From Alentia gelatinosa (lineage: Eukaryota > Annelida > Polychaeta > Phyllodocida > Polynoidae), in NCBI GenBank assembly GCA_950022655.1, contig OX465588.1, forward strand, positions 26,707,525-26,771,524: DNA of 64,000 nucleotides. The letters run 5' to 3'. The translations under genes were made by a program, and so were the position numbers. Numbering within the stretch: position 1 is the stretch's first letter; each line of letters opens with the position of its first letter. This document shows, one piece after another, positions 3,837 through 59,473 of this stretch. The notes under the pieces were generated by a model. The model was given only the letters and a program-made list of their open reading frames with translations. It did no database searches and had not been told where the DNA came from.

Positions 3837-4350
3837 ATGGCGCCTAGTAAGCACCATGAGACGGAGTACTCGGAGAAGCGGCCACTGCTGCTGGACAGCC
3901 AGCAGACGGCCGACTACACGGGTCAGTCACGCGTAACGGCCGAGGTGGTGGTCATGAAGAAGCACGTCACGCTCATGCACGCCATCGGGATGATCGTGGG
4001 CGGCGTGGCCGGCTCCGGGATCTTCATCTCGCCGACGGGGGTGACACAGAACGTGGGGTCTGTGGGGCTCTCCCTCATCATGTGGGCCGTGGGCGGACTG
4101 CTGAACCTCCTCCTCGCCCTGTGTTATGCTGAACTGGGCACCGCTCTGCCGTTCGCTGGCGGGGACTACGCCTACCTGCATCACATCCTCGGCCCCCTCC
4201 CTGCCTTCCTGTGCCTGTGGACGACGGTGTTGCTGATCGGGCCGTGCTGCGGGGCGCTGATGGGGCGTACGGTGGGCACGTACATCTTCACCATGTTCGA
4301 CGTCGAGTGTAACCTGCCGCTCGTCGTGCTGCTCTCCATCTGGGTCAACC
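3837..4350 (+). CDS. SLC7-type amino-acid transporter, coding exon 1 (residues 1-171)
   Basis: This is the first coding exon of a heteromeric amino-acid transporter light chain (SLC7 LAT/xCT/b0,+AT group), a 12-TM plasma-membrane exchanger that in known members pairs by disulfide with an SLC3 heavy chain. The ATG at 3837 has A at -3 and G at +4. The first 45 residues are a cytosolic tail. TM1 carries the family signature GVAGSGIFISP (about 56-66). TM2 ends in CYAELGTALP, and GGDYAYLHHILGPLPAFLCLW leads into TM3. Cys158 in VECNLP sits where the family's heavy-chain-linking cysteine lies. The exon ends GTCAACC|GTGAGT in phase 1, splicing to 30595. Codons are GC-rich compared with the flanking DNA. 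The full predicted protein is 501 aa over 42 kb, a normal family length. Confidence 0.95.
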
Positions 4351-16322: not shown

Positions 16323-16421
16323 ACAGATATACACAGACGGGGTATATCTTACTATAAAATAGAGATGGTGCCACTGACGGCCCTATCCTATTAGCGCCAC
16401 CAAGCGCCACCAGAGTCAGGT

Positions 16422-17744
16422 ATGAGGAGCGCGAACCTACAAGCGTCACTCACCTGCCGAAATTTTTTCTGTTCGGACGTACCCCTTACTATCCTCGCAA
16501 TGTCGCGCTGGTCCGCATTAGTGCGGTGGGTACTACTACTCCTCATGGCGGTATGTACGACTTGTGGTTTTACGTACGACGGAAGAACGTACAGGAAAGG
16601 ATGTCCAAAATGTCCGGAATCAGGTGAAAAGCGTTTACAGGACTTGGAAAGAAGTTTACAAGGCCTAGAAAGGAACGAAGGCACCGAAGAAGGCGCCATC
16701 GGAGGCTTCGACTCTAATCATCCACCTCCTGAGCAATTGCCCCGTGAGGTAATTGCCACGCTCCGATCAGACAATGCAAAATGTCAACATGAAGTTACTT
16801 CAATACGGAGCGAATTATCGACGCTGACGAGTATGATGGCCGAAATGAGACTTATGGTTATGGGTCTCCGATCTCCTCAAGATAATCAAGATGGCGGCCA
16901 AGGACGCGCAGAATCTACCGGCATCCAACATGGCGGACGCGGTGACGGGTTCCACATTCCACAGGTTAATACCTCTACACCACGGAATATCCAGCCAGCA
17001 GCGAAACAAACGTCTTATGTGCCAGCAACGACCGGAGACGTTATACCCCCTGCATTCTCCACAACGGACCGCCCCAGAGAATACGGCCAAGCGACTCAGA
17101 CAACTACAACTCATCCACCACCGTCTGGGCACGCAAGATTCCTACCCATATACTCTTCATCGTCTTCAAATTGGACTGCAGCACAAGGCATCCCTGTGGA
17201 GTACTCACACACTTGTACTTCAGAGACAAAGCGAAAACGTAAGTGTGAGGTTTTCTCACTGGAAAATCATTTACCTGCTGATGTGTCAAAACCAACTTTG
17301 GATAATGTACTTAGTGGTAGTATGTCCCTCATGAGGTCCATGTTAAGCCAAGGCATTAATGTAGCCCCTTATGCCGATCACTTGGCCTTTTTATCGGACC
17401 GAAGACCACATATGACGAGTCAATCTTTGATAGATTACAATACAGCCTGCCGAGAAAAGGCAGAATTACTTGGATCAGATTCGTTCTGTTATGGCGATTC
17501 GTATCTCGTGGCCAAATACTTGAACTTTGAAAAATCGCTTGCCTTCGTAAAAGTCCAAGAACCAAAACAAAAAGCAAAGGTCACAAAGGTCAAGACATCT
17601 CGCCCGTTTGGATATTGTTGGCGTTTCAACGAAAAGGACAATGGTTGTACTAATTCGGAATGCAAGCACAAACATGAGTGCCTGGACTGCTCTGGAACAC
17701 ATCCTAGTTACAAATGTCCCAAACGCAAACAAGATACAAAATGA
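16422..17744 (+). CDS. Gag-like ORF of a YR (DIRS-like) or related retroelement, 440 aa
   Basis: This is an intact ATG-started 440-codon ORF in intron 1. The N-terminus has a hydrophobic stretch (about residues 35-50, LVRWVLLLLMAVCTTC) and a Cys pair in KGCPKCP. A possible coiled coil (KRLQDLERSLQGLE, then SIRSELSTLTSMMAEMRLMV) and a Pro/Thr/Ser-rich middle follow. The C-terminus is Cys/His-rich (YCWRFNEKDNGC, ECKHKHECLDC, HPSYKCPKR), a nucleic-acid-binding arrangement common in Gag proteins of DIRS-type elements. It ends at TGA 17742-17744, and the same frame stays open afterwards. Assignment to YR elements rather than another retroelement class rests on this Cys/His pattern and the downstream peptide, so the class is moderately certain and the Gag identity fairly certain. 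Confidence 0.7.
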   Translation: MRSANLQASLTCRNFFCSDVPLTILAMSRWSALVRWVLLLLMAVCTTCGFTYDGRTYRKGCPKCPESGEKRLQDLERSLQGLERNEGTEEGAIGGFDSNHPPPEQLPREVIATLRSDNAKCQHEVTSIRSELSTLTSMMAEMRLMVMGLRSPQDNQDGGQGRAESTGIQHGGRGDGFHIPQVNTSTPRNIQPAAKQTSYVPATTGDVIPPAFSTTDRPREYGQATQTTTTHPPPSGHARFLPIYSSSSSNWTAAQGIPVEYSHTCTSETKRKRKCEVFSLENHLPADVSKPTLDNVLSGSMSLMRSMLSQGINVAPYADHLAFLSDRRPHMTSQSLIDYNTACREKAELLGSDSFCYGDSYLVAKYLNFEKSLAFVKVQEPKQKAKVTKVKTSRPFGYCWRFNEKDNGCTNSECKHKHECLDCSGTHPSYKCPKRKQDTK

Positions 17745-25564: not shown

Positions 25565-26890
25565 AATGTGCAGTTGTCATGGCAACCAAATAGGGACAAT
25601 ATTAATATCTCAATGCAATCAGGATCGTTATACTCAGAACATTCTTAAATATTATTTTGATTGATAAGAGGACCTGTGAGTTACATGTGAAAGAGTAACA
25701 GTATGCATCTCTAAGCTCTATATTGGGAATGTGACTGCATAGATACACAACATACACATACGCTTGTGCTCAAGCCAGCCTTGCAGAACCTACATCATGC
25801 CTTAAAATGAGACTTTCCTATTCAAAAGTGTCTATAAAGAGTAATATTTGTACTCTGACTTTGTCATAAGATACACAGGTCTATGTTGATAGGTTTGGGT
25901 GTGGCTAGCTTATCAAAAAACATAGATAATCCTCAAAAAAACACTATTTCCACCAAAAAAGGGTAAATTTGGTTGCCATGGCAACCAAATTGGAAAAGTA
26001 TCAACATGTCAATGTAATCAGGATCATTATACTCAGAACATATTCAAATATTGTTTTGATAGATAAAAGTGCTTGAGAGTTACATGTGAAAGAGTAACAG
26101 TATGCATCTCTAAGCTCTATATTGGGAATGTGACTGCATAGATACACAACGTACACATACGCTTGTGCTCAAGCCAGCCTTGCAGAACCTACATCATGCC
26201 TTAAAATGAGACTTTCCTATTCAAAAGTGTCTATAAAGAGTAATATTTGTACTCTGACTTTGTCATAAGATACACAGGTCTATGTTGATAGGTTTAGGTG
26301 TGGCTAGCTTATCAAAAAACATAGATAATCCTCAAAAAAACACTATTTCCACCAAAAAAGGGTAAATTTGGTTGCCATGGCAACCAAATTGGAAAAGTAT
26401 CAACATGTCAATGTAATCAGGATCATTATACTCAGACCATATTCAAATATTGTTTTGATAGATAAAAGTGCTTGAGAGTTACATGTGAAAGAGTAACAGT
26501 ACGCATTTATCATTGGAGCTCCATATTGGGAATATAATTGCATTGCAAAATGACATATATGTACATGTACAAGCTACCCCTGTGAAGCCTTCCCTATATC
26601 TAAAAGATGACATTATCTGCTAATAAATGTCTCTACTAACCACTATCTGTATTCTGACAAGGTCTCAAGTTAAATTATGATACCTAAATAAGTTTCGGTG
26701 TTCCTTATTCGTAAAAAAAGTGGAAAAATCCTTAAAAAATGCATTTTTCTATGCAAAATTACCTTAAATTGGTTGCCATGGCAACTGAAATTTCGAATCC
26801 TATTAGTGGTTCCATGTACCTAATCATCATATCTATACATGTGTAAAATATCTTTTTAATCAATCAATTATTACCAACACAGTAGAGAAA
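25565..26890. repeat. Tandem array of about 400-bp units, each with an X-box-like palindrome
   Basis: Two well-preserved and two flanking diverged copies of an approximately 400-bp unit are present. Each contains a GTTGCCATGGCAAC palindrome (first copy GTTGTCATGGCAAC) at 25573, 25972, 26371 and 26772, spaced 399, 399 and 401 bp. The middle copies are nearly identical across TAACAGTATGCATCTCTAAG and beyond. No ORF is shared among copies. Confidence 0.9.
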
Positions 26891-30594: not shown

Positions 30595-30720
30595 TGACAG
30601 CGGCTGTGTTGAACGCTCTCAGCGTGAAGTGGGCGGCTCGGTGTCTCACCATCATGTCCCTGGCCAAGCTGGTGGCCCTCAGCATCATCATAATCACTGG
30701 CTTCACCAAATTAGCAACAG
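30595..30720 (+). CDS. SLC7 transporter, coding exon 2 (residues 172-213)
   Basis: This 126-nt exon follows the acceptor TTTTCCACCACAG and ends ACAG|GTGAGT. It encodes the end of TM4 and TM5. The run VLNALSVKWAARCLTIMSLAKL is the family's conserved 'N.YSVK.ATR.Q....AKL' segment. Phase 1 at both ends matches its neighbours. Confidence 0.93.
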
Positions 30721-32417: not shown

Positions 32418-32517
32418 GTAGCACAAATAACTTTGACAACGTTTTTGCTGGCAGTAAGACGGACATGTGGTCTTTGGTTGGTGGATTCCTCCCAGGTTTC
32501 GTTGCTTATGTTGGTTG
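32418..32517 (+). CDS. SLC7 transporter, coding exon 3 (residues 214-246)
   Basis: A 100-nt exon between GATGCTTACAG and TTG|GTGAGT (phase 1 in, phase 2 out). It encodes the extracellular loop STNNFDNVFAGSK and the start of TM6, WSLVGGFLPGFVAYVGW. The GGF...F.Y.GW pattern is conserved in light chains and contributes to the unwound TM6 substrate region. Confidence 0.93.
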
Positions 32518-33853: not shown

Positions 33854-33898
33854 GGATGCAGTTAACAGTTTAGCAGAGGAGATGAAGAATCCGGGCAG
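33854..33898 (+). CDS. SLC7 transporter, coding exon 4 (residues 247-261)
   Basis: A 45-nt micro-exon after TCCTTTACAG, ending GGGCAG|GTGAGC, phase 2 on both sides. It encodes DAVNSLAEEMKNPG, equivalent to the family's 'W..LN...EE..NP.R' stretch. It is too short for ORF tools and was found from flanking phase and family pattern. Confidence 0.9.
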
Positions 33899-35323: not shown

Positions 35324-35447
35324 AGACCTGCCTCTGTCCGTCTCCATCTCCATGGTCTTAGTCATTCTCATCTACATCCTGACGAACATCGCCTACTTCA
35401 GTGTGCTCACCCCCGCCGAGTTCATCAGGTCCGACGCCGTCGCCACG
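35324..35447 (+). CDS. SLC7 transporter, coding exon 5 (residues 262-303)
   Basis: A 124-nt exon after ACTTTGTTTGTAG, ending GCCACG|GTAGGA (phase 2 in, phase 0 out). It encodes RDLPLSVSISMVLVILIYILTNIAYFSVLTP, the conserved 'R.LP......M...T..Y...N.AYF..L' TM7 segment, and the loop to TM8. Confidence 0.93.
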
Positions 35448-37543: not shown

Positions 37544-37647
37544 TCCTTTGCACAGCAAACGTTGGGAAGTGTGGCGTGGATGGTACCTATAGTTGTCGCC
37601 ATGTCTGCAGCAGGCTCATCAGTCGGAGCCTACCTGGCCTACCCCAG
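37544..37647 (+). CDS. SLC7 transporter, coding exon 6 (residues 304-337)
   Basis: A 104-nt exon between TTGATGGTGCAG and CCCCAG|GTGAGT (phase 0 in, phase 2 out). It encodes TM8, SVAWMVPIVVAMSAAGSSVGAYLAYPR, matching the family's 'P..VA.S..G...G......R' core. Its last 12 nt and the donor have been copied into the adjoining 53-bp minisatellite. Reading past the true donor meets TGA at once (CCC AGG TGA), so use of a downstream copy would truncate the protein. Confidence 0.93.
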
Positions 37648-38590
37648 GTGAGTCAGAGTATAAAGATACCCGTCCCTATAAAAGACATGGCCTACCACAG
37701 GTGAGTCAGAGTATAGTGATACCCGTCCCTATAAAAGACATGGCCTACCACAGGTGAGTCAGAGTATAAAGATACCCATCCCTATAAAAGATATGGCCTA
37801 CCACAGGTGAGTCAGAGTATAGTGATACCCATCCCTATAAAAGACATGGCCTACCACAGGTGAGTCCGAGTATAAAGATACCCGTCCCTATAAAAGACAT
37901 GGCCTACCACAGGTGAGTCAGAGTATAGTGATACTCATCCCTATAAAAGACATGGCCTACCCTAGGTGAGTCAGAGTATAGTGATACCCATCCCTATAAA
38001 AGACATGGCCTACCACAGGTGAGTCAGAGTATAGTGATACCCATCCCTATAAAAGACATGGCCTACCACAGGTGAGTCAGAGTATAAAGATACCTATCCC
38101 TATGAAAAACATGGCCTACTCCAGGGACCTGTTTTACTAGTTTCGTGACATGTCTAGATGGCGTCTAGATGGTGTGTCCGGTTTCATAAGAACTAGACAT
38201 TAGACTTCGTTTTGTCCGTTCTTGCTTGCACTGTTGGTGCCGCTTTTCATGTCTGTCTAACACTTTTGTCATGAAACTAGTGAAACCAATCCATGATGTG
38301 TAGATTCGTCTAATTCTTATGGTTGGGGTCTGTCTTTTCCTAAGGGCAGCTACTTGTGTTGTAACAAAACTAGACAACCCCAATGCCTGTATGGTGTCAC
38401 AGACATGTCACGAAACTAGTGAAACAGGTCCCTGGTGAGTCAGTACAGAGATACCCATCCCTATGAAATACCTGGCCTACCCCAGATGAGTCATAGTAAC
38501 AGGATACCCGTCCATATGAAGGCCCTTATCTACCAAAGTCGGATGAGAGTGTAAAAACACCCATTCCTATAAAAGATGGCCTACCCAATG
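37636..38590. repeat. 53-bp minisatellite carrying copies of the exon 6 donor site
   Basis: The unit is GGCCTACCACAGGTGAGTCA plus 33 more bases. GTGAGT occurs at 37648 (the real donor) and at 37701, 37754, 37807, 37860 (GTGAGTCC variant), 37913, 37966, 38019 and 38072, each exactly 53 bp apart. Decayed units continue at 38433-38590 and about 38885-39030 with CTGGCCTAC cores. A MITE interrupts the array at 38124. Confidence 0.95.
38124..38432. mobile_element. MITE copy 2 (GGGACCTGTTTTACTAGTTT) inside the donor minisatellite
   Basis: It opens GGGACCTGTTTTACTAGTTT and closes GAAACTAGTGAAACAGGTCC, and matches 922-1237 through the interior. It is inserted right at a donor copy, with CTACTCCAG on the left and GTGAGTCAG resuming on the right. 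Confidence 0.88.
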
Positions 38591-39263: not shown

Positions 39264-39360
39264 GTATGCTTTCGCGGGTGGCAGAGAGGGACAGCTTCCT
39301 AAAGTGATGTCTATGGTCAGCCTACACCACTTCACACCTATCCCGGGAATTATACTTATT
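39264..39360 (+). CDS. SLC7 transporter, coding exon 7 (residues 338-370)
   Basis: A 97-nt exon after TTTGATGTTGCAG, ending CTTATT|GTGAGT (phase 2 in, phase 0 out). YAFAGGREGQLPKVMSMVSLHHFTPIPGIIL is the family's 'Y...REG.LP......H....TP.P......' loop between TM8 and TM9. It precedes the alternative exon pair. Confidence 0.94.
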
Positions 39361-39389
39361 GTGAGTCTATAAGTGTACAACGAGTGAGT

Positions 39390-39660
39390 CTGTGTACACA
39401 AATACAGTGTGTATGTCTGGGAATGTTGTGTGTGAATGTAGCATGTCTATGTCTCTGTGTGTGAATATGTGTATGTAGATACAATTAGTCTGTGTGGGTT
39501 TATGTAAATTTCAGAATGTCTGTCTGTGGATGTTTCATGTCTATGTCTGTGTGTGTGTATGTGTGAGAGAGACAGAGAGAGAGACTGTGTTCGTAAATAC
39601 AGTGTGTCTGTGTGTGAATGTAGCATGTCTAAGTATGTGTGTTTGATGTCACGATTAGAA
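39390..39660. repeat. GAATGTAGCATGTCTATGTC-type repeat, with copies at 40510-40620
   Basis: GTGTGAATGTAGCATGTCTATGTCTG and CAGTGTGTCTGTCTG words recur three or four times. A further block lies at 40510-40620. Confidence 0.6.
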
Positions 39661-40339
39661 TGTAAGGTGTGCTATCAATGGCAGGTTCTGCCATACTGTG
39701 AAATAACATGGACATGGACACTGACAGCTTCATGCTGGCTGCTCCTAAGTTTTGACGCAGTAATTTCCAGTCTATTGGCAGGATGTATCAAGCTGACACT
39801 GCTGGCAGCGATCATGTAATATCCGTAATAAGGTATGTTCGTCTCCTTCCATTCAGAGTAAGGCCATATCAGATAGGCAAGACGGTTTGAATTGAATAAT
39901 CCAGAACTGCTTTCACAGTAAAACGACGCCTGATGCAATAGCCATTTAGTTCGGGATTTGCCTGTGGAGTTGCTGCCATCGTAACACACTTATGAATAGC
40001 CTTAACAGCCAGTGTATTGACATTGAAACAGACGTTTGAGAGCAAAATTAATGATTATTTCTGTCTTTTATACATCAATTTAAAACTGATTCTGCTATTT
40101 GCACACTTTTAAACATTGATATTTGAATAACTGCATTGAAACCATTGTGAACTATATCCTCTCTTAGAGCAAACAAAACAACTTCCATGTAGATAAATAA
40201 CTTAGCAGCGAAGTATCACAGTGCATGAACCGAGACTTGCTCCAACAATAACAAGTAGCAAATGGAAATTCAGCACGCATTTTATGTTGGCCGTTGAGTT
40301 TGTATTCACTTTTTTAGTAATCTAAAAGGTAGAGAGGGG

Positions 40340-40495
40340 TAGGATAACATATGAACGCCACTCAATTTCATATGAATGTCTGTTTGTCACTCGTTGTCTT
40401 CTGCTCCGGATTTCACTCGGTTACGGCTTCTGAAATCACTACACGAAGGCAACTCATGACATATAAACATTTACATGAAATTCTGTGATGTTTCA
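40340..40495. mobile_element. Fold-back MITE with CACTCGGTTACGGCTTC loop; right arm duplicated at 40630-40710
   Basis: CATATGAACG/CAATTTCATATGAATGTC arms pair with GACATATAAACATTTACATG. About 80 bp of the right arm (GAAATCACTA..GACATATAAACAT..TTTCATCTTA) is repeated at 40635-40705 just before exon 8a. Confidence 0.65.
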
Positions 40496-40840
40496 TCTTA
40501 TTATAGAGTATGTAAATCTGTGAATGTTGCATGTCTATGTCTGTGTGTGTGAGAGTGTGTTGGTGAATACAGTGTGTCTGTCTGTGAATATAGCATGTCT
40601 GTGTCTGTGTGAAGTGAGCATGATGGAGCGCCTCGTGAAATCACTATGCACAGACAACTCGTGTCATATAAACATACATTTGAAATTTCGTGACGTTTCA
40701 TCTTAGTATTGCATGGGCATATAATAAATATGCGTCTTTCCCAGGGTGGGCTTCAGCCTGTGCAAACTGCTTGCAATGCTTGTTGATGCTGCCTCGCTTA
40801 AGTGTCTCCAGCCTTTACTCACTTGTCGATTCTGTTGCAG

Positions 40841-40996
40841 TCCCTTTTCGGCATCATTATCAGTTCTGCAGTTTTCTTCGACATCCAAAATCTGCTTGCC
40901 ATCGGCAGCTGTGTGAATCAGATAAAGTGTGCGCTTGTGCTCATTGCTCTTCTGCATGTGAAGCGCTACCAGAAGGACCTGCCACGGACTGTCAAG
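40841..40996 (+). CDS. SLC7 transporter, alternative coding exon 8a (52 residues, TM9-TM10)
   Basis: A 156-nt exon after CGATTCTGTTGCAG, ending GTCAAG|GTACGA, phase 0 on both sides. It encodes SLFGIIISSAVFFDIQNLLA and then TM10, GSCVNQIKCALVLIALL, and a basic end, KRYQKDLPRTVK. In position it equals the TM9-TM10 hairpin of light-chain transporters, with the terminal 'RP.KVP' motif completed by exon 9. Exon 8b, 46 nt downstream, is the same length and 25 of 52 residues are identical without gaps. Including 8a alone gives an intact 501-residue protein. Reading on into the intron hits TAA seven codons later. TM10 of known light chains has a Trp here ('SF..WLF'); this exon has Gln. Confidence 0.93.
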
Positions 40997-41042
40997 GTAC
41001 GAACTCTCACCTCATAACTGTGTCACTGTTTCTCGTTTCTAG
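40997..41042 (+). other. 46-nt intron between alternative exons 8a and 8b
   Basis: It is bounded by AAG|GTACGA and TTTCTCGTTTCTAG|AAC. It is much shorter than any other intron in this gene (1.2 to 26 kb). The donor, branch region and acceptor would be squeezed together, which could prevent 8a-to-8b splicing by steric interference. Confidence 0.85.
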
Positions 41043-41198
41043 AACTTGGCCGCCATCTTGTTTTCGTCAGCTGTCTTCTTTGACCTTCAAGGGCTGCTGG
41101 CCTTGACGAGTGTCATCACGCAGTTTAAGATGGTGCTTGCTTTGATGGCACTTATACGACTCAAATGGACCATGTCCCATCTCAAGCGAACCATGAAG
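41043..41198 (+). CDS. SLC7 transporter, alternative coding exon 8b (52 residues, TM9-TM10)
   Basis: A 156-nt exon after TTTCTCGTTTCTAG, ending ATGAAG|GTAGAA, phase 0 on both sides. It encodes NLAAILFSSAVFFDLQGLLA, then TSVITQFKMVLALMALIRLK and a tail SHLKRTMK. It shares SSAVFFD.Q.LLA and S...Q.K with exon 8a but differs in most TM10 side chains and in the loop charge. Both open reading and splice sites are intact, so it is not an obvious relic. Either exon joins in frame to exons 7 and 9. Including both would add a third membrane hairpin; skipping both would remove one. Confidence 0.93.
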
Positions 41199-44100
41199 GT
41201 AGAATTCAATCACTTCACCTCTGTGCGTAGGTAGGACTAGTAGCCAGCCAATGATTCTACCAGGGTTAGGAGCAGCCTAACAATGTGAATACTCAATGAT
41301 CTATGTCTCTTTATGATGTGGGTTTTATAACACTATTCACATTTAACCCCATTTGGAGCAGAAATACTCGGAACAAGAAAGGTAAAAGTCTTCATTTTCC
41401 CGAATCAAGGTCCTGTGAATAGTATTTCGTTTAACAGTTGTGTGAATGAGTGAAATATTGTCAGATTTCCTATCATGAGGTCATTTGTCATTCCAGCCAT
41501 GCTTTATTTTACATCAAGAAAATCACAATTTCTTTTCTTCACCATGGAGAAGTATACATTATATCTAAGAGTTGAAACGATTCTGGATTTATATAGACTT
41601 ATACAACTTTCTCGCTGTAGAGATAAATATTTCAATGGTGAGATCATATGTCGACCATGTACCATTGGATGAACCGATCTAATTCCATGGCTAGAAATAT
41701 CATGCCTTTCGAACTAGAAGAAATACAGGCTCATTCATCAGGAAATCATTGATCATTTAGTGATTTAGATATCGCTATCACCCTTATCTTAACAATGCAC
41801 GCATTCTAGGCAATAAAAGATACGCACTTTATCCTAGAGTTATCTAAATTCATTATATTAAGTATATTCCTAGTTTTAGTTACAAAATAGTGACCATCAT
41901 TGCTCAGTGAGGTATGAAGGCTGCTGGCCCCACTTTGGCCGTACACTGCAACTCTGGTAGAATCATGGTGTAAACTGCTTAGTTTAAAGGCATATCGGAT
42001 GATTTACCCTGAAAATTTAATGTTATTTTCATAGACTTTAATATGAGGATCTGAAAGTATTACAGAGCCCATATCGAAGTAAGAAATGGGGGATCATTTT
42101 GCTTGTCTTTCACCAAGAAATAAATATCTTATCACAGAATATATATAGAATTTCTAAAAAGGTTTCGAATAGTAAAAGCAATGTGATTTTCTTATTAAAT
42201 ATTGTATATATGGAGTACTATACATCTAGATATTAAAACAATAGGTTACTCTCTTCCATTGTTTTCTTAAGGGAATTGAGGAAAGACATATTTTCAGTAC
42301 AATTTCTATATAATTCAAGCATATGTAAATAGGCTCCCGTTACCTATAGGGTTAAAACCAACTGAACAAAACATTACACCTTACCCATTTGATATTAGAA
42401 TAAGTAACAAGGAACATAATTGTCAATACCATTGTGATCATGAAATGTAGGATATGCCTTTAATGCTTGTACACACTCCGCCTTTCAAATGAATTATATA
42501 TATTTGATATTAGAAAAATTTGGTCATTCAAAACCAGATTCCTACTATCAAGGATTAAGACCTTCCCACTTCTCTCTCTCACTGATTAAGGTCTCATAGT
42601 CTGTGATAAGGACGCCTGTGATTCTACTTTCTGAGTTGCATTGTTACAGTCAAAATGCTGTTAGGACATGAATCCCCCCTTCTGACCTCTCCTCACACAC
42701 ATCCATCTGAGTCCCCACTTCCCTCACAGGACCAAATCACTCTGTTCCGACTAATAGGTTGGTGTGGTTGAGTCCAGACTTTGTTCAAGAACATCAATCT
42801 CAAATCAAAATACTCACTAAAAAATATTCTTAGATTATAAAATTGATAATTAAGTAAAGTTTAATGATAATTTTCAATCAAAATACACACAAAATCCGTA
42901 TCTTACGCGGCGATTACGACACGATCTGCAAAATTTCAGGAGCAACGTTTAGGCCCTCGGATCGCTATTCTGTGATCCGCAGCTCTGTCGTAAACTTGGG
43001 GCAACGGGGCCCAGAGGTAACGTAGAGTAGCTCCGGTGGCCAGTGTAGGGTATAGGCTAGTTCATTGAGGCCCCACGATGTGTCTCCATCAAACGTCACC
43101 CACACTAACGGATTTACCTCACTTCTTCCTTCTAGTCGTCACCTTCTCCACACATCACATATTCACATTTGTCCACCCACACACACATTTTTTTATAGTT
43201 TATTTATACCCTACAACAATTCATAGGGGTGCTTCAACAGACCTTTTAATGTATATTATCTATTCAATATTTATCTCATATATACAAATATTAGCTGGTC
43301 TTATCTCATTAGATAAATCACTTTATTTTCTCAAGCCACATCTCTATCGTCCTTTCATTCCGACACCATTAGCATGCCTGGAGGCACCTCTAGGACTTAC
43401 CAGATGAATGCCTCCAGGCATTCTCAGGACTGAAAGGGTCAGAACACCAATAGCTGAGGTGGTAAGACTCATAAGGAGTTGGTGGGTGGGTAGAAGTAGT
43501 CGAAGTCAATATGATGAGCTCGGGATGAAGCGTAGAAGATGTGCTTGTGAAAAATGGCCTTTTGATCGGACCCCGTAATATACAAATTACCCAAGCATGA
43601 TGGACGACTAAGTGTCCTAATGCCCTTATTATTGACACAGTAAAACGCCAGCATCCCAATGCTTGGAGGTGATTATCAAATGTCAATCATAATCATAAGA
43701 ATCTCATTCATCAATCATCAATATATCAAATATTTGAAGTCATTATTCATTATCGCAATTAACCATCACCCTTTAACCATAAGTATTGCACTACTTTACA
43801 CAAACATAAGTATTGACTGAGAACTATTTCTATATTGTTAAGGACTCAATTCTCTAGTAACATTTACTCAATTTGTTATGAATTCTATCAATTTACTAAG
43901 GTATTTATTTCACATTTCATTACCAGTGTATGCTACATCAGGATACGCATTGCATTATGATCTATAAGTGACATAAGTTTCACCTTTCGTGCCTCTTCTC
44001 ACCTCTGATTGACCTCACTGACCTTGTGTGGTGTCTATTTCACATTTCTGTCCTCTGATGAATCACTGATCAGGGTTTAACAGCTGATTGACATCCATTT

Positions 44101-44404
44101 CACTTATTCTTGGCCTTTTATTGACATTTCATATTGGTCTGTGATTGATATCTGCTTTGCTTCTGGTTGACCTTACTATCCTCTGATTGACCTCTGTTTG
44201 ACCTCTGAACTCCCCCTCTATGACCTCTGATTGATGTTTAAATAATGACCTATCTTTGACATCTGATTCATATTTGGTTGACCTCTGAATGACCTATAAA
44301 TGATGTCGGAATGACCCCTGAATGGTCCTTGATTGACCTACGATTGACTTCTAACATACTTCTAAATCACCTCTGAATGACCTTGAGACGACCTTGGCCT
44401 CCAG
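41199..44404 (+). other. Intron 8 (3.2 kb)
   Basis: AT-rich non-coding sequence with no third copy of exon 8. The last 420 bp are rich in TGACCT words. Confidence 0.7.
43990..44398. repeat. TGACCTCTGAT-type degenerate repeat
   Basis: TGACCTCTGAT and variants (TTGACCTCTG, ATGACCTCTG, TTGACATCTG) recur about twenty times, ending just before exon 9. TGACCT (AGGTCA on the other strand) is a nuclear-receptor half-site. Spacing varies; one direct repeat with 3-bp spacing is at 44010-44024 and one with 5-bp spacing at 44188-44204. Confidence 0.75.
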
Positions 44405-44579
44405 GTACCGACGCCGCTGGTGGTGCTGGCGCTGATAGCCCTCCTGCTAATCCTGTGTCTGGCAGTGCTGCAGGAGCCACTCGTGAATGGCGTTGGGCTG
44501 CTCCTCTTCCTGCTCGGCATCCCCATCTACTATGTCGGTAACTGGTGTAAACAGACACACTGCTTTGACACGGCAACAG
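44405..44579 (+). CDS. SLC7 transporter, coding exon 9 (residues 423-480)
   Basis: A 175-nt exon after CTTGGCCTCCAG, ending GCAACAG|GTGGGT (phase 0 in, phase 1 out). VPTP completes the conserved 'KVP..' motif. TM11 is LVVLALIALLLILCLAVLQ and TM12 is GVGLLLFLLGIPIYYVGNW, matching the family's 'G.G......G.P.Y'. It ends in the short tail WCKQTHCFDTAT. Confidence 0.92.
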
Positions 44580-45811: not shown

Positions 45812-45876
45812 ATTACATCTGCATAATCTGTCAGCAGCTGTTTCATCTGGTCCCTGGTGGAAAGAAAGCTTCCTAG
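45812..45876 (+). CDS. SLC7 transporter, last coding exon 10 (residues 481-501)
   Basis: A 65-nt exon after TCTCATTGTGTTTTCAG. With the G carried from exon 9 it reads DYICIICQQLFHLVPGGKK and stops at TAG 45874-45876. The pattern 'LQ.L..VVP' near the C-terminus is conserved in light-chain transporters, which supports this exon over a competing acceptor at 48186. The total is 501 residues, normal for the family. No AATAAA was seen close by, so the poly(A) site is unassigned. Confidence 0.8.
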
Positions 45877-52230: not shown

Positions 52231-52472
52231 TCACCAGAAACTTGACTTTATGACTTTAAACCATTGCCCTGGCTGGGTCATATCTCCCTGGTTCGTCCCC
52301 AAAGAATATAAAGTGCAGGACTCGCTCAAAGAGTAGTAATGTAAGATTTCACAATGAGGTTTGTTTATACATTTGACCCCACATTCTGTTACAGAGCGCG
52401 ATGACGTCACTTCTGGCAGGGCTACGGAGATGATGCTTCCATTGACGATGGCAGAAAACCGCAAGTTTCTAT
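52231..52472 (-). CDS. C-type lectin/PAN protein, last exon (PAN/apple-like domain)
   Basis: This is the final exon of a minus-strand gene. Reading leftward from the acceptor TTTTTCTGGTCTACTTGCAG it opens with AT (phase 1 from the previous exon) and encodes about 79 residues to TGA at 52231-52233. The pattern VTSSRSVTECGVKC, then PHCEILHYYSLSESCTLYSL and a final WFKV, fits a PAN/apple-like fold: Cys-x3-Cys-x5-Cys-x(11)-Cys with an aromatic end. PAN domains bind proteins or carbohydrates in secreted and surface proteins. The phase match with the lectin exon at 53287 supports one transcript. No other domain is seen, so this is the C-terminus. Confidence 0.75.
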
Positions 52473-52739
52473 CTGCAAGTAGACCAGAAAAAGACTTGAA
52501 TCTTTTAAGCTGATTTATCTCTAAACAACTGTGAACATATTTTACATGCACAACTACCCATGGTTTTGTGATCGACCGGCTGAAAGTGGTCGTTTTATTT
52601 CTAACCCTCGCAGGGGATGACTGGCACAACGAAGGATACCTCCATGGACAGTACATTAAACAAGAGCCCGTCAATCGCGTTTGATTATGTGTGTCGTCCA
52701 TAGGTAGAGAATTCCTCGTCCGTAGTCTCCTACAAGTGA

Positions 52740-53260
52740 TCCTGAGGACAAAATCAGCTTGAAAGACACATGGGGGGGGGGGACTTGAACCAGGGGTCGA
52801 CAACACGGACGACCATACAGAATAAAAGGGGTATCCCACTATCACGTTGGCGCATTTCTTAAATCGTGGCCGGTATCGTAACCGTGGTCTTCTTTTCAAC
52901 CCGTTCCGACACACTACAACACACTCCGACACACTCCGACAAAGCCCTTCCGATAGGTCTACGATTGGAAAATTTCTCATCATAGCTCAATCGCAGCACT
53001 TTTTGCAGTGTGTCGGGACAGTGGGAGCCCGCTTGAAGGTCATGCAAGACAAGACATTGTAAGGCCTGGCGTCCACCTACTACGATAGAAATTTAGACCT
53101 ACTGATATGACACCGATATAAAAGGCAAATATCGGAGAAACGTGGTCAACTGCCCCGATATTAGGTGACCTTCTGACGCGATTTTGATTTTTTATCGGAA
53201 GGTGCATCGTAGACCATATCGGAGCCGTATCGTATAGTAGGTGGACGCCGGGCTTAACTC
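52740..53260. mobile_element. MITE of the GGCGTCCACCTACTACGAT family, in the lectin intron
   Basis: Between 53063 and 53256, GGCGTCCACCTACTACGAT is matched by ATCGTATAGTAGGTGGACGCC at the right. Preceding sequence 52955-53062 matches 48500-48600. Interior words (TATCGGAGAAACGTGGTCAA, CTGCCCCGATATTAGGTGAC) occur inverted at 62085-62140. A run of ten or more G lies near 52773. Confidence 0.7.
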
Positions 53261-55865: not shown

Positions 55866-56655
55866 TTGGCTCTACGCTGTTCGCGGCACCGCATACTCCA
55901 CGGGTATCGGTCCGAGGCCGTAAGGGCAAGAGTTTAAAAGTACGGGTTAGCAGGAAGACAGGTTCACGTGAAATGCCGAAAACGCGAGCTGGACCGAGCA
56001 CGTCTCAGGCTCAGGAGGAATCTTCGGATTCGACCATGCGGCCTTCCGAGGACCACGTGGAATCGGCCTCGGAGGTCGGGAGCGTGAAAACCACCCGCCT
56101 CGTGGCGGTGGGAAAGCAGTGCGGGCATTCGCTCCATGCCTGTAACCGCAAGTTGGGTTACACCATGGGGTACGACAGTCAGCAAGCCCCCCAACCCCCA
56201 GCAGCACGGCGGGCGGGCCAGGTGGCGTACACCCCACAGGCTGGATACACGTTGAGGGCGGCCGACCCCGGACCGGATGCCCTGTACCAACACGGCGGTC
56301 AGCCGGCGGCAAAATACGGGCACGGTGCGCCCCGCGAGTGATCGGAGCGCACCCCAACACAGGATGCTCACGTGTAGGCAAGCCCCGGACCCCTGCGGAC
56401 ACCGGATGCGGCACACGTGAGATCACACGACCGGTAACCCGTGTAACAACACCGGACAGGAAACGGCCGCCGGCCACGTGGGCCGAGGTGGTCAGTCGCT
56501 CCTGCCCGGATACACCCCCCTCTGGAGCACCCGCAACACGTGGGGTGGATGGGGGGCGGGGGACACGTGACGCCATAGCGACTGCGGCCGCCCCACCACG
56601 TGAGGAGGGGGCGGTCGGCAATAACAACAACAACAACAACACGGTACCCCACGTG
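55767..56655. promoter_or_regulatory. Cluster of 11 CACGTG palindromes
   Basis: CACGTG begins at 55767, 55784, 55965, 56054, 56369, 56414, 56475, 56537, 56564, 56597 and 56650. This is the canonical E-box core of bHLH-Zip factors. Only one more was seen in the rest of the coding region (57874), plus two in the A2 repeat. The function is inferred and not shown. Confidence 0.6.
55973..56341 (+). CDS. ORF1 (putative Gag) of the Ngaro-like element, 122 aa
   Basis: The first ATG in the frame is at 55973, just after TTCACGTGAA, and the frame stays open to TGA at 56339-56341. The frame is open upstream to at least 55787 but without ATG. The product is Ser/Glu-rich at the N-terminus, then Pro/Gln/Ala/Tyr-rich, with no Cys/His knuckle. 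That makes it short and atypical for Gag. The RT frame (-1 relative to this one) is open across at least the last 120 nt, so a -1 frameshift could make a fusion. Identity as Gag rests on position only. Confidence 0.55.
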   Translation: MPKTRAGPSTSQAQEESSDSTMRPSEDHVESASEVGSVKTTRLVAVGKQCGHSLHACNRKLGYTMGYDSQQAPQPPAARRAGQVAYTPQAGYTLRAADPGPDALYQHGGQPAAKYGHGAPRE

Positions 56656-58500
56656 GCCGGCCCGGTGGGCGTCGGCCACTCGGGTCCACCCTCCGACAGC
56701 GTGGCCGGCCCCAGCGGCACGGCAGAGCCCAGCACATTGGACTTCAAGGCACTGGAGGAGATCTGCCGCACGGGCATCGTGACCGCCGGGACTCGTACGG
56801 ACCCGGAGGCCTTTATGTTACATCGCCGCAAGCAGTGGCCGGAGATGGACGACAACGCTCCACCGGCGCACGGCCACATATACCGGGCCGTGCGGGCAAC
56901 CGGGCTCCCAAACGCCATGTGTAGCAAGATAACTCTACCCACGGACTTACGGCTACGGACGTGGGAGAAGTACCTAACGGCGATGCAGGGGAAGCGGGAG
57001 CTGCTGGGGTTCATACGTTATGGATTCCCCCTCGGATACCTGGGACCCGCGACCGATACCCAGGGGGTCCCAAATCATCCCAGCGCGACGGCTTTTCCCA
57101 CGGAGGTAGGCAGGTTTATCACTAAGGAGCTCTCCTTCTCAAATCTGCTCGGGCCGTTCGCCGAGGCCCCGTTCACTCCGTGGTGCCACGTCTCTCCGTT
57201 GATGTCGCGGGAGAAACGGGACTCCGATGCCCGGCGGGTGATAACGGATATGACCTTCCCCCGGGATCGGAGCGTCAACGCCTACGTGAGGAAGAACTCG
57301 GTGTACGGGGAGGAGAGGGAGCACACTCTCCCCACGATCGACGGTTTTGTCTCCCGTCTCCTGCGATCGGGTCCCTCAAGCTACATGGCCTCCATCGACA
57401 TCGCGAGGGCATATAAAAATTTCCGGTGTGACCCCCTCGACTGGCCCCTCTTGTGTTTCGCGTGGGACGGCGGGTACTACTGCGATACGTCGATGCCGTT
57501 CGGTGCCCGCGCGTCCTCGTATCACATGCAGTGTGTTGCAGATACGATAGTGGAGATCCTCGCGCGAAAGGGGGTGGAGGCGGCCATGTACCTCGACGAC
57601 CTGATCCTGCTATCGCCGTCAAAGGAGAAAGCCGCCGCCGACTTCGCGACCGCTAGGGAGCTCTTCCGCGAGCTAGGGCTGCCCGAGGCCCGGGAGAAAG
57701 CACAAGAACCGTCGCAGGTCGTCCGTTGGCTGGGCATCAACATCGACGCACGAAACATGACTCTGTCGGTGCCCGAGGACAAACTCCAGGACGTCCGGCA
57801 GCACGTCGCGGCCGTCGCACGGAAACGCTCGCTAACCAAGCGGCAACTCCAGTCGGTGCTGGGAAAAATCCTCCACGTGGCAAAGTGCATCCGCCCGGCA
57901 AGACCCTTCGTAAGCAAGCTACTGGAGGCACTGCGTGGAATGTCAGGGTTTTACCTAAACATCTCCTCGGACATGCGGCAGGACCTCGACTGGTTCTCTA
58001 GGTTTGCGGAGGGTTGGAACGGGCGTGCCTTGATTCCCAGGGGCCCCCCGACGAAATGCATCACTGTGGACGCCTGCCTCACCGGGGTCGGGGGCACCGA
58101 CGGCCGCCTGGCCTACTCCGCCCAGGTGTGCCCGGTTGCCGACCCGGTGAATTGCATATCGGAACTGGAAGCCCTCAACACGATATACGCCCTCAACACG
58201 TTCCTGACCGACCGGGACCGGGGGACGCGGGTTGAGGTCTTCTGCGACAACATGGGAACCGTCCAGGCACTAACATCGGGGCGGGCACGGAACAAGGTGC
58301 TGGCGGAGTGTGCCCGCCAAGCCTGGATGGTACAAGCGAGGCTCCAGGTCGAGCTGGTATACACGCACATCCCGGGGATCCTCAACTCGGTCGCGGATGC
58401 CCTCAGCCGGTCGCACCTCACCTCCAGTGACTATTCTAAAGCTGCCTTTTACATGACCTCTCTTAACCTCAGAGCTGTCGCTCCATGTAACCACGCCTCA
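56338..58500 (+). CDS. Reverse transcriptase-RNase H of the Ngaro-like element
   Basis: The frame is open to 59253, but similarity ends near 58440 and the rest is antifunctional overlap with the recombinase. There is no ATG until MLHRRKQWPE (56815), so translation likely depends on fusion to ORF1 or a non-ATG start. The first 130 residues are low-complexity, with an Asn run. RT motifs: ASIDIARAYKNF (motif A Asp), MPFGARASSYHMQ (motif B), YLDDLILL (motif C, residues about 418-425), then EKAQEPSQVVRWLGINID. RNase H follows: ITVDACLTGVGG (Asp578), ISELEALNTIYAL (Glu), VEVFCDNMGTVQAL (Asp) and PGILNSVADALSR (Asp). All expected catalytic acids are visible. The product makes cDNA from the element RNA. 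Confidence 0.88.
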
Positions 58501-58501
58501 T

Positions 58502-59473
58502 TTGTGCCTATCCTCCGGCTTTACTGCAGATCCGGCGCTACGCTGTCTCCAACAGAGGGCATCTGCGCGGCAGGGCACGGTCGCCAACCAGCGAAGCGCA
58601 GTGACTACATACCTAGCGTTCTGCCGGAGGATGGGCGTGGACCCCCAGCAGCCGACCGTCAGCCTACTCACCGCGTACCTGGAGTACGTCCGAGACCACG
58701 CCCCCTCACCAGCGACCGTAGCCAACCATCTGTCTCACCTACGGTCGCACCTACGGCTGTCAGGAGGGAACATTGCGGCAACGGAGGACGCCCGCGTCAA
58801 GCGGGCACTGGACGCAATGAAGAGGGACAAGGCCTACCAGCCAAACGTGAAGCCTCCTATACCTATGGAGGCCCTCAGAGGCGTCCTCAGCGGTCTCACG
58901 GCCACGCCCCTCGACCGGTCGACCAGAGCGGCGTGCCTCCTCATGTTCTTCGCGGCCCTGCGGCAGAGCGAAGTCGCGCCGCCAACCGTCAAGAGCTTCG
59001 ATCCGGTCCGGCACCTCACACGAGGAGACGTGAGGGTCACTTCTACTCACGTCGACGTGAGGATCAAGGCTGCAAAGAACCTCCAGTGTGTTGGAGAAGA
59101 GAAACGCGTATCTCTGCAGCCCTCCCCGGACCGGATGTCGTGCCCGCTGCGGGCAGTGAGAGCGATGATCGCGGCCGTTCCTACGACCAACGACCGCGAG
59201 CCCTTCCTCATGAACGAGGATCGCTCCCCCATCATGACTCGATGTCTCGCTAAAGAGTGGGACCGTCTCATCGCGCTGGCAGGGATACCATTAAGGACAT
59301 ATACCCTGCACAGCCTGCGAAAGGCCGCGGCGACGCAGGCCTTCCAGGCCGGAGTCCCTGAACTGGATATACAGAGGTATGGGGGGTGGCGCTCCAACGC
59401 CCACAGAAGCTACATCCGCACCTCGGATGCCAATCGGGTGAATGATTCCCTCCTCAAGTCAATTAACGAGTGA
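58502..59473 (+). CDS. Tyrosine recombinase of the Ngaro-like element, 323 codons
   Basis: Open in the frame +1 to RT (the same frame as ORF1), with TTG as the first codon of the counted ORF and the first ATG at GVDPQQP, so the true start may be a fusion. The N-terminal core-binding part resembles YR recombinases (RQGTVANQRSAVTTYLAFCR, PATVANHLSHLRSHL). The catalytic domain shows Arg154 in FAALRQSEVA, His270 and Arg273 in HSLRKAAAT, GGWR and the nucleophile Tyr304 in RSYIR. It would join the circular cDNA to genomic DNA. It ends at TGA 59471-59473, 50 bp before B1. All key residues are present, so it may be active. Confidence 0.9.
   Translation: MCLSSGFTADPALRCLQQRASARQGTVANQRSAVTTYLAFCRRMGVDPQQPTVSLLTAYLEYVRDHAPSPATVANHLSHLRSHLRLSGGNIAATEDARVKRALDAMKRDKAYQPNVKPPIPMEALRGVLSGLTATPLDRSTRAACLLMFFAALRQSEVAPPTVKSFDPVRHLTRGDVRVTSTHVDVRIKAAKNLQCVGEEKRVSLQPSPDRMSCPLRAVRAMIAAVPTTNDREPFLMNEDRSPIMTRCLAKEWDRLIALAGIPLRTYTLHSLRKAAATQAFQAGVPELDIQRYGGWRSNAHRSYIRTSDANRVNDSLLKSINE

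What the first reader, a model, noticed from the sequence alone, without database searches (positions are those of the whole stretch)
40841..41198. Mutually exclusive exon pair swapping TM9-TM10 of an SLC7 transporter
Two neighbouring exons have equal length (156 nt), the same phase (0/0), intact splice sites and 25/52 identical residues without a gap. Each completes the 501-residue transporter; both together or neither would break the membrane topology. Vertebrate SLC7A2 (CAT-2A/2B) has mutually exclusive exons that change affinity, but in a cytosolic loop of a different subfamily. Exchange of a TM9-TM10 hairpin in a light-chain-type transporter is, to my knowledge, not described.
Basis: partly seen in the sequence, partly recalled or inferred. 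Interest (0 to 1): 0.9.

Follow-up and report, generated by a model that had tools for sequence, protein, structure and literature searches.

The report
Alternative exons swap transporter substrate-site helices
An invertebrate amino acid transporter gene carries two interchangeable exons for the same pair of membrane helices, spaced so closely that only one should fit into a message, so one gene can probably make two transporters with differently lined substrate pockets.

Summary
At 40841-40996 (A) and 41043-41198 (B) lie two 156-nt, phase-0/0, GT-AG-bounded exons, 25/52 residues identical without a gap; among 127,684 gapless window frames compared with each, the next best match is 12 or 13. 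Either completes a 501-residue SLC7 light-chain-type protein. New here: (1) the A-B intron has 46 nt, the other nine introns 1,232-26,244 nt, so any branch point lies within the 50-nt limit published for steric interference. (2) Both exons keep a TM10 Gln+Lys pair seen in only 4 of 161 relatives with those columns. (3) The gene sits in an orphan clade, support 100/100, apart from the sampled named subfamilies. (4) A and B differ at LAT1 positions 400 (G/T) and 404 (N/T); 404 is xCT Arg396 and LAT2 Asn395, which contact substrate. (5) The closest relative, apparently a spliced contig, ends exactly at the junction of the shared and alternative exons, as an assembly fork would. No RNA of this species was available. 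Best reading: mutually exclusive exons, enforced by the short intron, that probably re-tool the substrate pocket.

The parts
3837..4350 (+). exon 1: start codon, TM1-TM4, conserved heavy-chain cysteine (residue 158 of the model)
   Evidence: Cys column C in 155 of 164 relatives
30595..30720 (+). exon 2: TM5 with the conserved lysine
   Evidence: K in 164 of 164 relatives
32418..32517 (+). exon 3: TM6, gate position Val
33854..33898 (+). exon 4: 45-nt exon, DAVNSLAEEMKNPG
35324..35447 (+). exon 5: TM7
37544..37647 (+). exon 6: TM8
39264..39360 (+). exon 7: last shared exon before the choice, ends ...TPIPGIILI (start of TM9), phase 0
   Evidence: relative P0003 ends exactly here
40841..40996 (+). 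alternative exon A (52 codons): rest of TM9, TM10 with G400/C402/N404/Q405/K407 in LAT1 numbering, TM10-11 loop
40997..41042 (+). 46-nt GT-AG spacer intron between A and B; proposed steric block to joining A to B
   Evidence: criterion of under 50 nt from PMC5740500 (passages)
41043..41198 (+). alternative exon B (52 codons): rest of TM9, TM10 with T400/V402/T404/Q405/K407, TM10-11 loop
44405..44579 (+). exon 10: TM11-TM12, shared
45812..45876 (+). exon 11: C-terminus and stop

Best explanation
A tandem exon duplication in an SLC7 light-chain-type amino acid transporter of an orphan invertebrate clade gave two mutually exclusive exons. Each supplies the C-terminal part of TM9, TM10 and the TM10-11 loop, so the messages 1-7-A-10-11 and 1-7-B-10-11 each encode a complete 501-residue transporter. 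Joining A to B is blocked because the 46-nt intron leaves too little room between the donor of A and the branch point of B. The two TM10 versions share the clade's Gln405 and Lys407 and basic residues at 419 and 427, but differ at 400 (G/T), 402 (C/V), 404 (N/T), 406 (I/F) and 408 (C/M); the isoforms should therefore differ in substrate choice or affinity. Shown: anatomy, homology, constraint, intron length, clade, aligned positions. Inferred: exclusive use in RNA, the steric mechanism, the functional difference. The confidence below is for mutually exclusive use; that the swap changes substrate choice or affinity I put at about 0.55.
For: Equal length and phase, intact GT-AG sites, one 501-aa product with either exon. 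25/52 identity against 12-13 for the best unrelated frame; dN below dS; 0 of 20,000 neutral runs at each of two path lengths are open with 25 or more identities. A-B intron 46 nt against 1,232-26,244 nt for the other nine; published steric criterion: donor to branch point under 50 bp. Gln405 and Lys407 occur in both exons and in 4 of the 161 relatives (of 164 aligned) that have residues there: P0004, P0005, P0006, P0124. Without the exon, the window falls with the 7 relatives I had set apart beforehand, support 100/100. Positions: R396 of xCT is essential and is N in LAT1/LAT2 and A in b0,+AT; N395 of LAT2 bonds Trp in one binding mode and F400A of LAT1 lowers Trp affinity. HMMER aligns the N of exon A with N404 of LAT1. 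P0003, 68% identical over 314 residues, ends at the last residue of exon 7.
Against: No transcript of this species was available; all seventeen own-genome requests did not complete. Some animals splice introns of about 45-50 nt (recalled, from no call), and no intron length distribution could be measured for this genome, so A+B (553 aa, in frame) is not excluded; no branch point was mapped. The P0003 end may be chance; its DNA could not be fetched. The N/T change at 404 is one of 27 differences between the exons, and the four clade members with that column have A or V. LAT1 F400V had no significant effect on L-DOPA transport. The evidence for contact at 402 is a docking model whose TM10 register is one residue off the cryo-EM structure. 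A search with both C-terminal versions found no homologue.
Confidence: 0.78

Rival explanations
1. Only one exon is used; the other is a relic or is very rarely spliced.
For: No RNA evidence for either junction; a tandem duplicate can lie unused.
Against: Both keep an open frame, equal length, splice sites, Q405/K407 and the D after FF. Substitution without selection leaves on average 4.9 (whole path) or 10.8 (half path) identities and an open frame in 6% or 12% of runs (indels not modelled). Of the 117 relatives (of 120) with the segment, 60 are nearer to A, 35 nearer to B and 22 equal, means 10.1 and 9.7 identities, so neither exon looks decayed.
Confidence: 0.1
2. Both exons can be included in tandem, giving a 553-residue protein with an extra hairpin, or they act as independent cassettes.
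For: A+B and neither are both in frame, so nonsense-mediated decay would not remove them.
Against: A 46-nt intron beside nine introns of over 1.2 kb. An extra TM9-TM10 pair, or its loss, should break the TM1-5/TM6-10 repeat fold described for xCT.
Confidence: 0.12
3. The exons are mutually exclusive (so this overlaps the best explanation), but the swap tunes targeting, heavy-chain pairing or transport rate, not substrate choice or affinity.
For: Many of the 27 differences are conservative hydrophobic changes; part lies in the TM10-11 loop (RYQKDLPRTVK against WTMSHLKRTMK).
Against: The differences include positions 400 and 404 of TM10, which contact substrate or ligand in LAT1, LAT2 and xCT.
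Confidence: 0.25

Closest known systems
SLC7A2 CAT-2A/CAT-2B and fish slc7a1 exon 6a/6b
   Same: Similar alternative exons within one SLC7 gene; low (CAT-2A) against high (CAT-2B) substrate affinity is reported for the mammalian forms (PMC7584565, passages).
   Different: There the exchanged stretch runs from about the second half of TM8 through a cytoplasmic loop to the first half of TM9, in the CAT branch (14 predicted TMs). Here it is the rest of TM9, TM10 and the TM10-11 loop, in a heavy-chain-type light chain, and it carries substrate-site positions.
NKCC2 (SLC12A1) exons 4B/4A/4F
   Same: One of three similar exons of a transporter (same superfamily, recalled); encodes TM2 plus a loop and sets ion affinity (PMC7818487, passages).
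   Different: Different family and helix, three exons, ion cotransport.
Mutually exclusive exons kept apart by a branch point near the donor (OGDH 4a/4b)
   Same: Branch point close to the upstream donor blocks double inclusion (PMC7969005, abstract and passages; class counted in human genes by PMC5740500, passages).
   Different: There distant branch points do it (intron 118-131 nt in birds and mammals); here the whole intron is 46 nt and no branch point is mapped.
LAT1/LAT2/xCT light chains (SLC7A5, A8, A11)
   Same: Same fold by sequence (best PDB hits), heavy-chain cysteine, TM5 lysine, basic residues at 419 and 427.
   Different: No alternative TM10 exon for them appeared in the listings seen. 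This clade has Gln/Lys at 405/407, and the window has Val at the aromatic gate.
unc-32 exons 7a/7b of C. elegans
   Same: Mutually exclusive exons chosen by RBFOX (UGCAUG) and CELF (UUGUUGUGUUGU) sites (PMC3585155, passages); UG repeats and TGCATG lie in intron 7 here.
   Different: A gene outside SLC7 (recalled); here the motifs are only a statistical lead.

Membership tests
Mutually exclusive tandem-duplicated exons | Neighbouring homologous exons, same phase, similar length, intact splice sites | tested here: met
   156/156 nt, phase 0/0, 25/52 identical, GT-AG
Mutually exclusive tandem-duplicated exons | Both copies under coding constraint | tested here: met
   dN 0.61 against dS 1.76; 0 of 20,000 neutral runs at each of two path lengths; clade residues kept in both. 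No orthologous A or B exon of another species was available
Mutually exclusive tandem-duplicated exons | A sequence-level cause for exclusion: donor to branch point under 50 nt | tested here: met
   Whole intron 46 nt; criterion from PMC5740500. Branch point itself not mapped
Mutually exclusive tandem-duplicated exons | Transcripts hold one exon or the other, not both | not testable with these tools
   No RNA reads; indirect hint only, from the end of P0003
SLC7 light chains of heteromeric transporters | Amino acid permease domain and sequence match to solved light chains | tested here: met
   PF13520 5.2e-57; best rows xCT and LAT1 chains, 4.4e-105 to 1.4e-91; isoform A given
SLC7 light chains of heteromeric transporters | Cysteine for the heavy-chain disulphide (C158 of xCT) | tested here: met
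   Cys 158 of the model; column C in 155 of 164 relatives
SLC7 light chains of heteromeric transporters | TM5 lysine (K198 of xCT) | tested here: met
   K in the model and in 164 of 164 relatives
SLC7 light chains of heteromeric transporters | Aromatic gate residue on TM6 (F252 of LAT1, Y244 of xCT) | tested here: not met
   V; 160 of 164 relatives have F, Y or W; V or I only in P0003, P0005, P0008, P0046. A gate difference inside the family, not taken as exclusion from it
A named light-chain subfamily (LAT, y+LAT, xCT, asc, b0,+AT) | Groups inside that subfamily in a tree | tested here: not met
   Separate group of 8 rows, 100/100, among 58 hand-chosen rows, midpoint root
CAT-2A/2B-type alternative exon | Alternative stretch from TM8 to TM9 with the cytoplasmic loop of a CAT | tested here: not met
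   Here rest of TM9, TM10 and TM10-11 loop (region of CAT-2 from passages)

The most novel reading that the evidence does not exclude
One gene makes two amino acid transporters with different substrates by choosing between two TM10 exons. The choice changes the TM10 position (xCT Arg396, LAT Asn404) that differs between substrate classes of SLC7 light chains, together with position 400. It works as a splice-operated specificity switch, older than the split from the nearest known relative and enforced by a 46-nt intron.
Probability: 0.42. Interest if true: 0.8.

Novelty: new variant of a known kind. Interest (0 to 1): 0.62.

Why it matters
Substrate classes of SLC7 light chains are normally separated between genes (general knowledge). 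If a single gene exchanges the TM10 pocket by splicing, nature has run the helix swap that structural work on LAT1, LAT2 and xCT points to, and comparing the two isoforms would test directly how far TM10 alone sets specificity. It would also add a substrate-site case to the few transporters known for alternative homologous exons (CAT-2, NKCC2).

Tried and rejected
Own-genome search for further exon copies, paralogues and intron lengths: all seventeen requests came back busy, so the species and its intron lengths stay unknown. Third gapless copy of the exon in the window: none. Homologues of the C-terminal piece with both exon versions: 2,293 candidates, none at E <= 0.001. Isoform pairs in the protein database: not looked for, because it is clustered at 90% and the A and B isoforms are about 95% identical overall. 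Docking/selector RNA pairs as in Dscam: 19 inverted repeats of 14 nt or more in 39300-44500, none that I could see arranged as alternative partners for A and B. Regulatory motifs in intron 7: TGTGTG 16 against 4.6 expected (0 of 200 Markov resamplings as high), GCATG 7 against 3.3 (9 of 200); the full TGCATG did not reach the print threshold of 10 of 200; seven motifs in five regions were tried without correction, so this is a lead only. P0123 (Trichinella) appears to be two transporters fused in one gene model and was dropped before the alignment. P0008 departs from the transporter sequence right after the exon 7 equivalent; it may be misspliced and was not used as evidence. PMC9741552, a survey of tandem-exon substitutions in human, fly and worm, has no 'SLC7' in its main text (passages), and PMC4209874 said nothing on CAT-2 exons in the passages shown.

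Full report
What is there. I rebuilt the gene: exons 3837-4350, 30595-30720, 32418-32517, 33854-33898, 35324-35447, 37544-37647, 39264-39360, then A or B, then 44405-44579 and 45812-45876. All introns are GT-AG and the product is 501 residues with either exon. A+B (553 aa) and neither (449 aa) also stay in frame, so decay of frame-shifted messages cannot be what keeps the exons apart.

More than chance. A and B share 25 of 52 residues without a gap and 81 of 156 bases. Among 127,684 gapless 52-codon frames of the window on both strands, the best match apart from itself and its partner is 12 for A and 13 for B. Differences fall 24/16/35 on codon positions 1/2/3; dN 0.61, dS 1.76, the latter close to saturation. 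In 20,000 runs of substitution without selection along the whole A-B path the mean identity was 4.9 residues and 6% stayed open; along half the path, 10.8 residues and 12%. None in either set was open with 25 or more identities; the highest identity in the half-path set was 25, not in an open frame (indels not modelled). Both exons look kept by selection. Of the 117 relatives (of 120) that cover the segment, 60 are nearer to A, 35 nearer to B and 22 equal, with means of 10.1 and 9.7 identities, so neither copy stands out as the decayed one.

What protein. With exon A, Pfam gives AA_permease_2 at 5.2e-57, and the best solved relatives are a consensus xCT, xCT and LAT1 chains, E 4.4e-105 to 1.4e-91; a partial model with B gave the same top families. 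The cysteine that binds the heavy chain and the TM5 lysine are present. In a tree of 58 hand-chosen rows (the window and 57 of the 164 relatives aligned), with the alternative exon removed, the window joins the seven proteins I had set apart from the alignment (P0003, P0004, P0005, P0006, P0008, P0046, P0124) with support 100/100, apart from rows labelled LAT, y+LAT, xCT, asc and b0,+AT (midpoint root; P0046 and P0124 are long branches). Two of the seven carry an organism name, both the annelid Capitella teleta; the others come from unnamed assemblies. The protein lists are the best 120 of 630 and of 763 hits, so further members may exist. It is a light-chain-type transporter of an orphan clade, substrate unknown. 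Its TM6 gate residue, aromatic in 160 of 164 relatives, is valine.

What the swap changes. Exon 7 (39264-39360) ends with TPIPGIILI at the start of TM9; A or B supplies the rest of TM9, TM10 and the TM10-11 loop. HMMER aligns the Asn of A (SCVNQIK) with Asn404 of LAT1 and with the Arg of xCT that becomes Arg396 after subtracting 8 residues (numbers counted by hand, the 8-residue offset assumed to be a tag). In LAT1 numbering, A/B differ at 400 (G/T), 402 (C/V), 403 (V/I), 404 (N/T), 406 (I/F) and 408 (C/M), and agree at S401, Q405, K407, K419 and R427. Q405 and K407 occur in 4 of the 161 relatives that have residues there (164 aligned; P0123 dropped beforehand): P0004, P0005, P0006 and P0124, all of this clade. 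Position 404 is E in 56, N in 33, R in 30, T in 11 and A in 11 of the 161; the four clade members have A or V.

Passages of PMC8654953 state that xCT Arg396 binds the far end of cystine, that the site is Asn in LAT1 and LAT2 and Ala in b0,+AT, and that A, N and K mutants do not transport. Passages of PMC12444478 report that LAT2 Asn395 bonds Trp in one of two binding modes and that LAT1 F400A lowers Trp affinity more than twofold, while F400V had no significant effect on L-DOPA transport. Passages of PMC7988154 describe Phe400 touching diiodo-tyrosine, TM10 rotating in the cycle, and Arg419 and Arg427 bonding Glu105 on the intracellular side; both these sites are basic in A and in B. PMC6803698 (abstract and passages) places F402 and W405 at the ligand in a docking model, but says that S401/F402 of the model correspond to F400/S401 of the cryo-EM structure, so I give 402 little weight. 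The exchanged segment thus keeps the clade and gate-side residues and changes substrate-site positions 400 and 404. That the isoforms differ in substrate is inference.

How exclusion would work. The intron between A and B has 46 nt; the other nine introns of the model have 1,232 to 26,244 nt. PMC5740500 counts a donor-branch-point distance under 50 bp as potential steric interference (passages); no branch point in a 46-nt intron can be further away. PMC7969005 describes a related mechanism in OGDH (abstract and passages). The steric reading is well founded but not proven: some animals splice introns of this size (recalled, from no call), and I could not measure introns of this genome. Intron 7 has 16 TGTGTG against 4.6 expected and three TGCATG, with a fourth in exon A; such motifs regulate exons 7a/7b of unc-32 (PMC3585155, passages). 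TGCATG itself was not over-represented by the test used, so this is a lead, not evidence. I saw no docking/selector arrangement among 19 inverted repeats.

Traces outside the window. P0003, 68% identical over 314 residues, runs from within exon 1 to exon 7 in one 964-base contig, so it looks like a spliced message; it stops at the last residue encoded by exon 7. An assembly graph that forks into A and B would end a contig there. The same end could be chance, and its DNA could not be fetched. A and B are 48% identical. The clade member P0005 is 40% (A) and 33% (B) identical in the exon and 43% elsewhere, while P0003 is 68% identical elsewhere. The duplication is therefore probably older than the split from P0003 and younger than that from P0005, unless the exons sped up after duplication.

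Comparison and novelty. Similar alternative exons in SLC7 are known for CAT-2A/2B and described for fish slc7a1, where they cover about the second half of TM8, a cytoplasmic loop and the first half of TM9 (PMC7584565, passages). NKCC2 exon 4 exchanges TM2 plus a loop and sets ion affinity (PMC7818487, passages). The listings showed no such exons in SLC7 light chains; two searches listed only 15 of 2,117 and 12 of 189 papers, and subscription papers are not covered. I file it as a new variant of a known kind: mutually exclusive exons in a new place, the TM10 substrate site of a light-chain-type transporter.

Verdict. Observation confirmed; interpretation supported, with RNA evidence missing and the topology argument restated. 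The odds of the first two rivals were raised slightly (0.09 to 0.10, 0.08 to 0.12), because a statement that no relative carries two copies of the segment was not properly tested and has been removed.

Noticed in passing
37635-38119: A 53-nt unit repeated 9.2 times (93% matches) begins in the last bases of exon 6. CAGGTGAGT, the real donor included, occurs exactly 8 times here at 53-nt steps (one step is a variant): a row of duplicated 5' splice sites, possibly decoys.
   Followed up: partly
39361-40840: Intron 7 is rich in UG repeats (16 TGTGTG against 4.6 expected) and has TGCATG at 40222, 40528 and 40710 (not itself over-represented), with one more in exon A at 40953; possible CELF/RBFOX control.
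   Followed up: partly
32418-32517: The TM6 gate residue that is aromatic in 160 of 164 relatives is Val here, and Val or Ile in four clade members: an unusual pocket independent of the exon choice.
   Followed up: partly
56146-59250: Open frame of 1,035 codons with a reverse transcriptase match (RVT_1, 3.7e-10) at the end of its first half; second half without a Pfam match: presumably a retroelement.
   Followed up: partly
16395-17741: 449-codon open frame inside intron 1 with no Pfam match at E <= 0.001.
   Followed up: partly
25735-26472: Two stretches 399 bases apart give the same or nearly the same short ORFs, a recent tandem duplication in intron 1.
   Followed up: no
52234-52986: Minus-strand open frame with a PAN domain match (3.8e-06), perhaps an exon of another gene.
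   Followed up: no
41251-41966: A 17-nt inverted repeat, 94% complementary, arms 682 nt apart, starts 53 nt after exon B; could form a hairpin near the donor of B.
   Followed up: no
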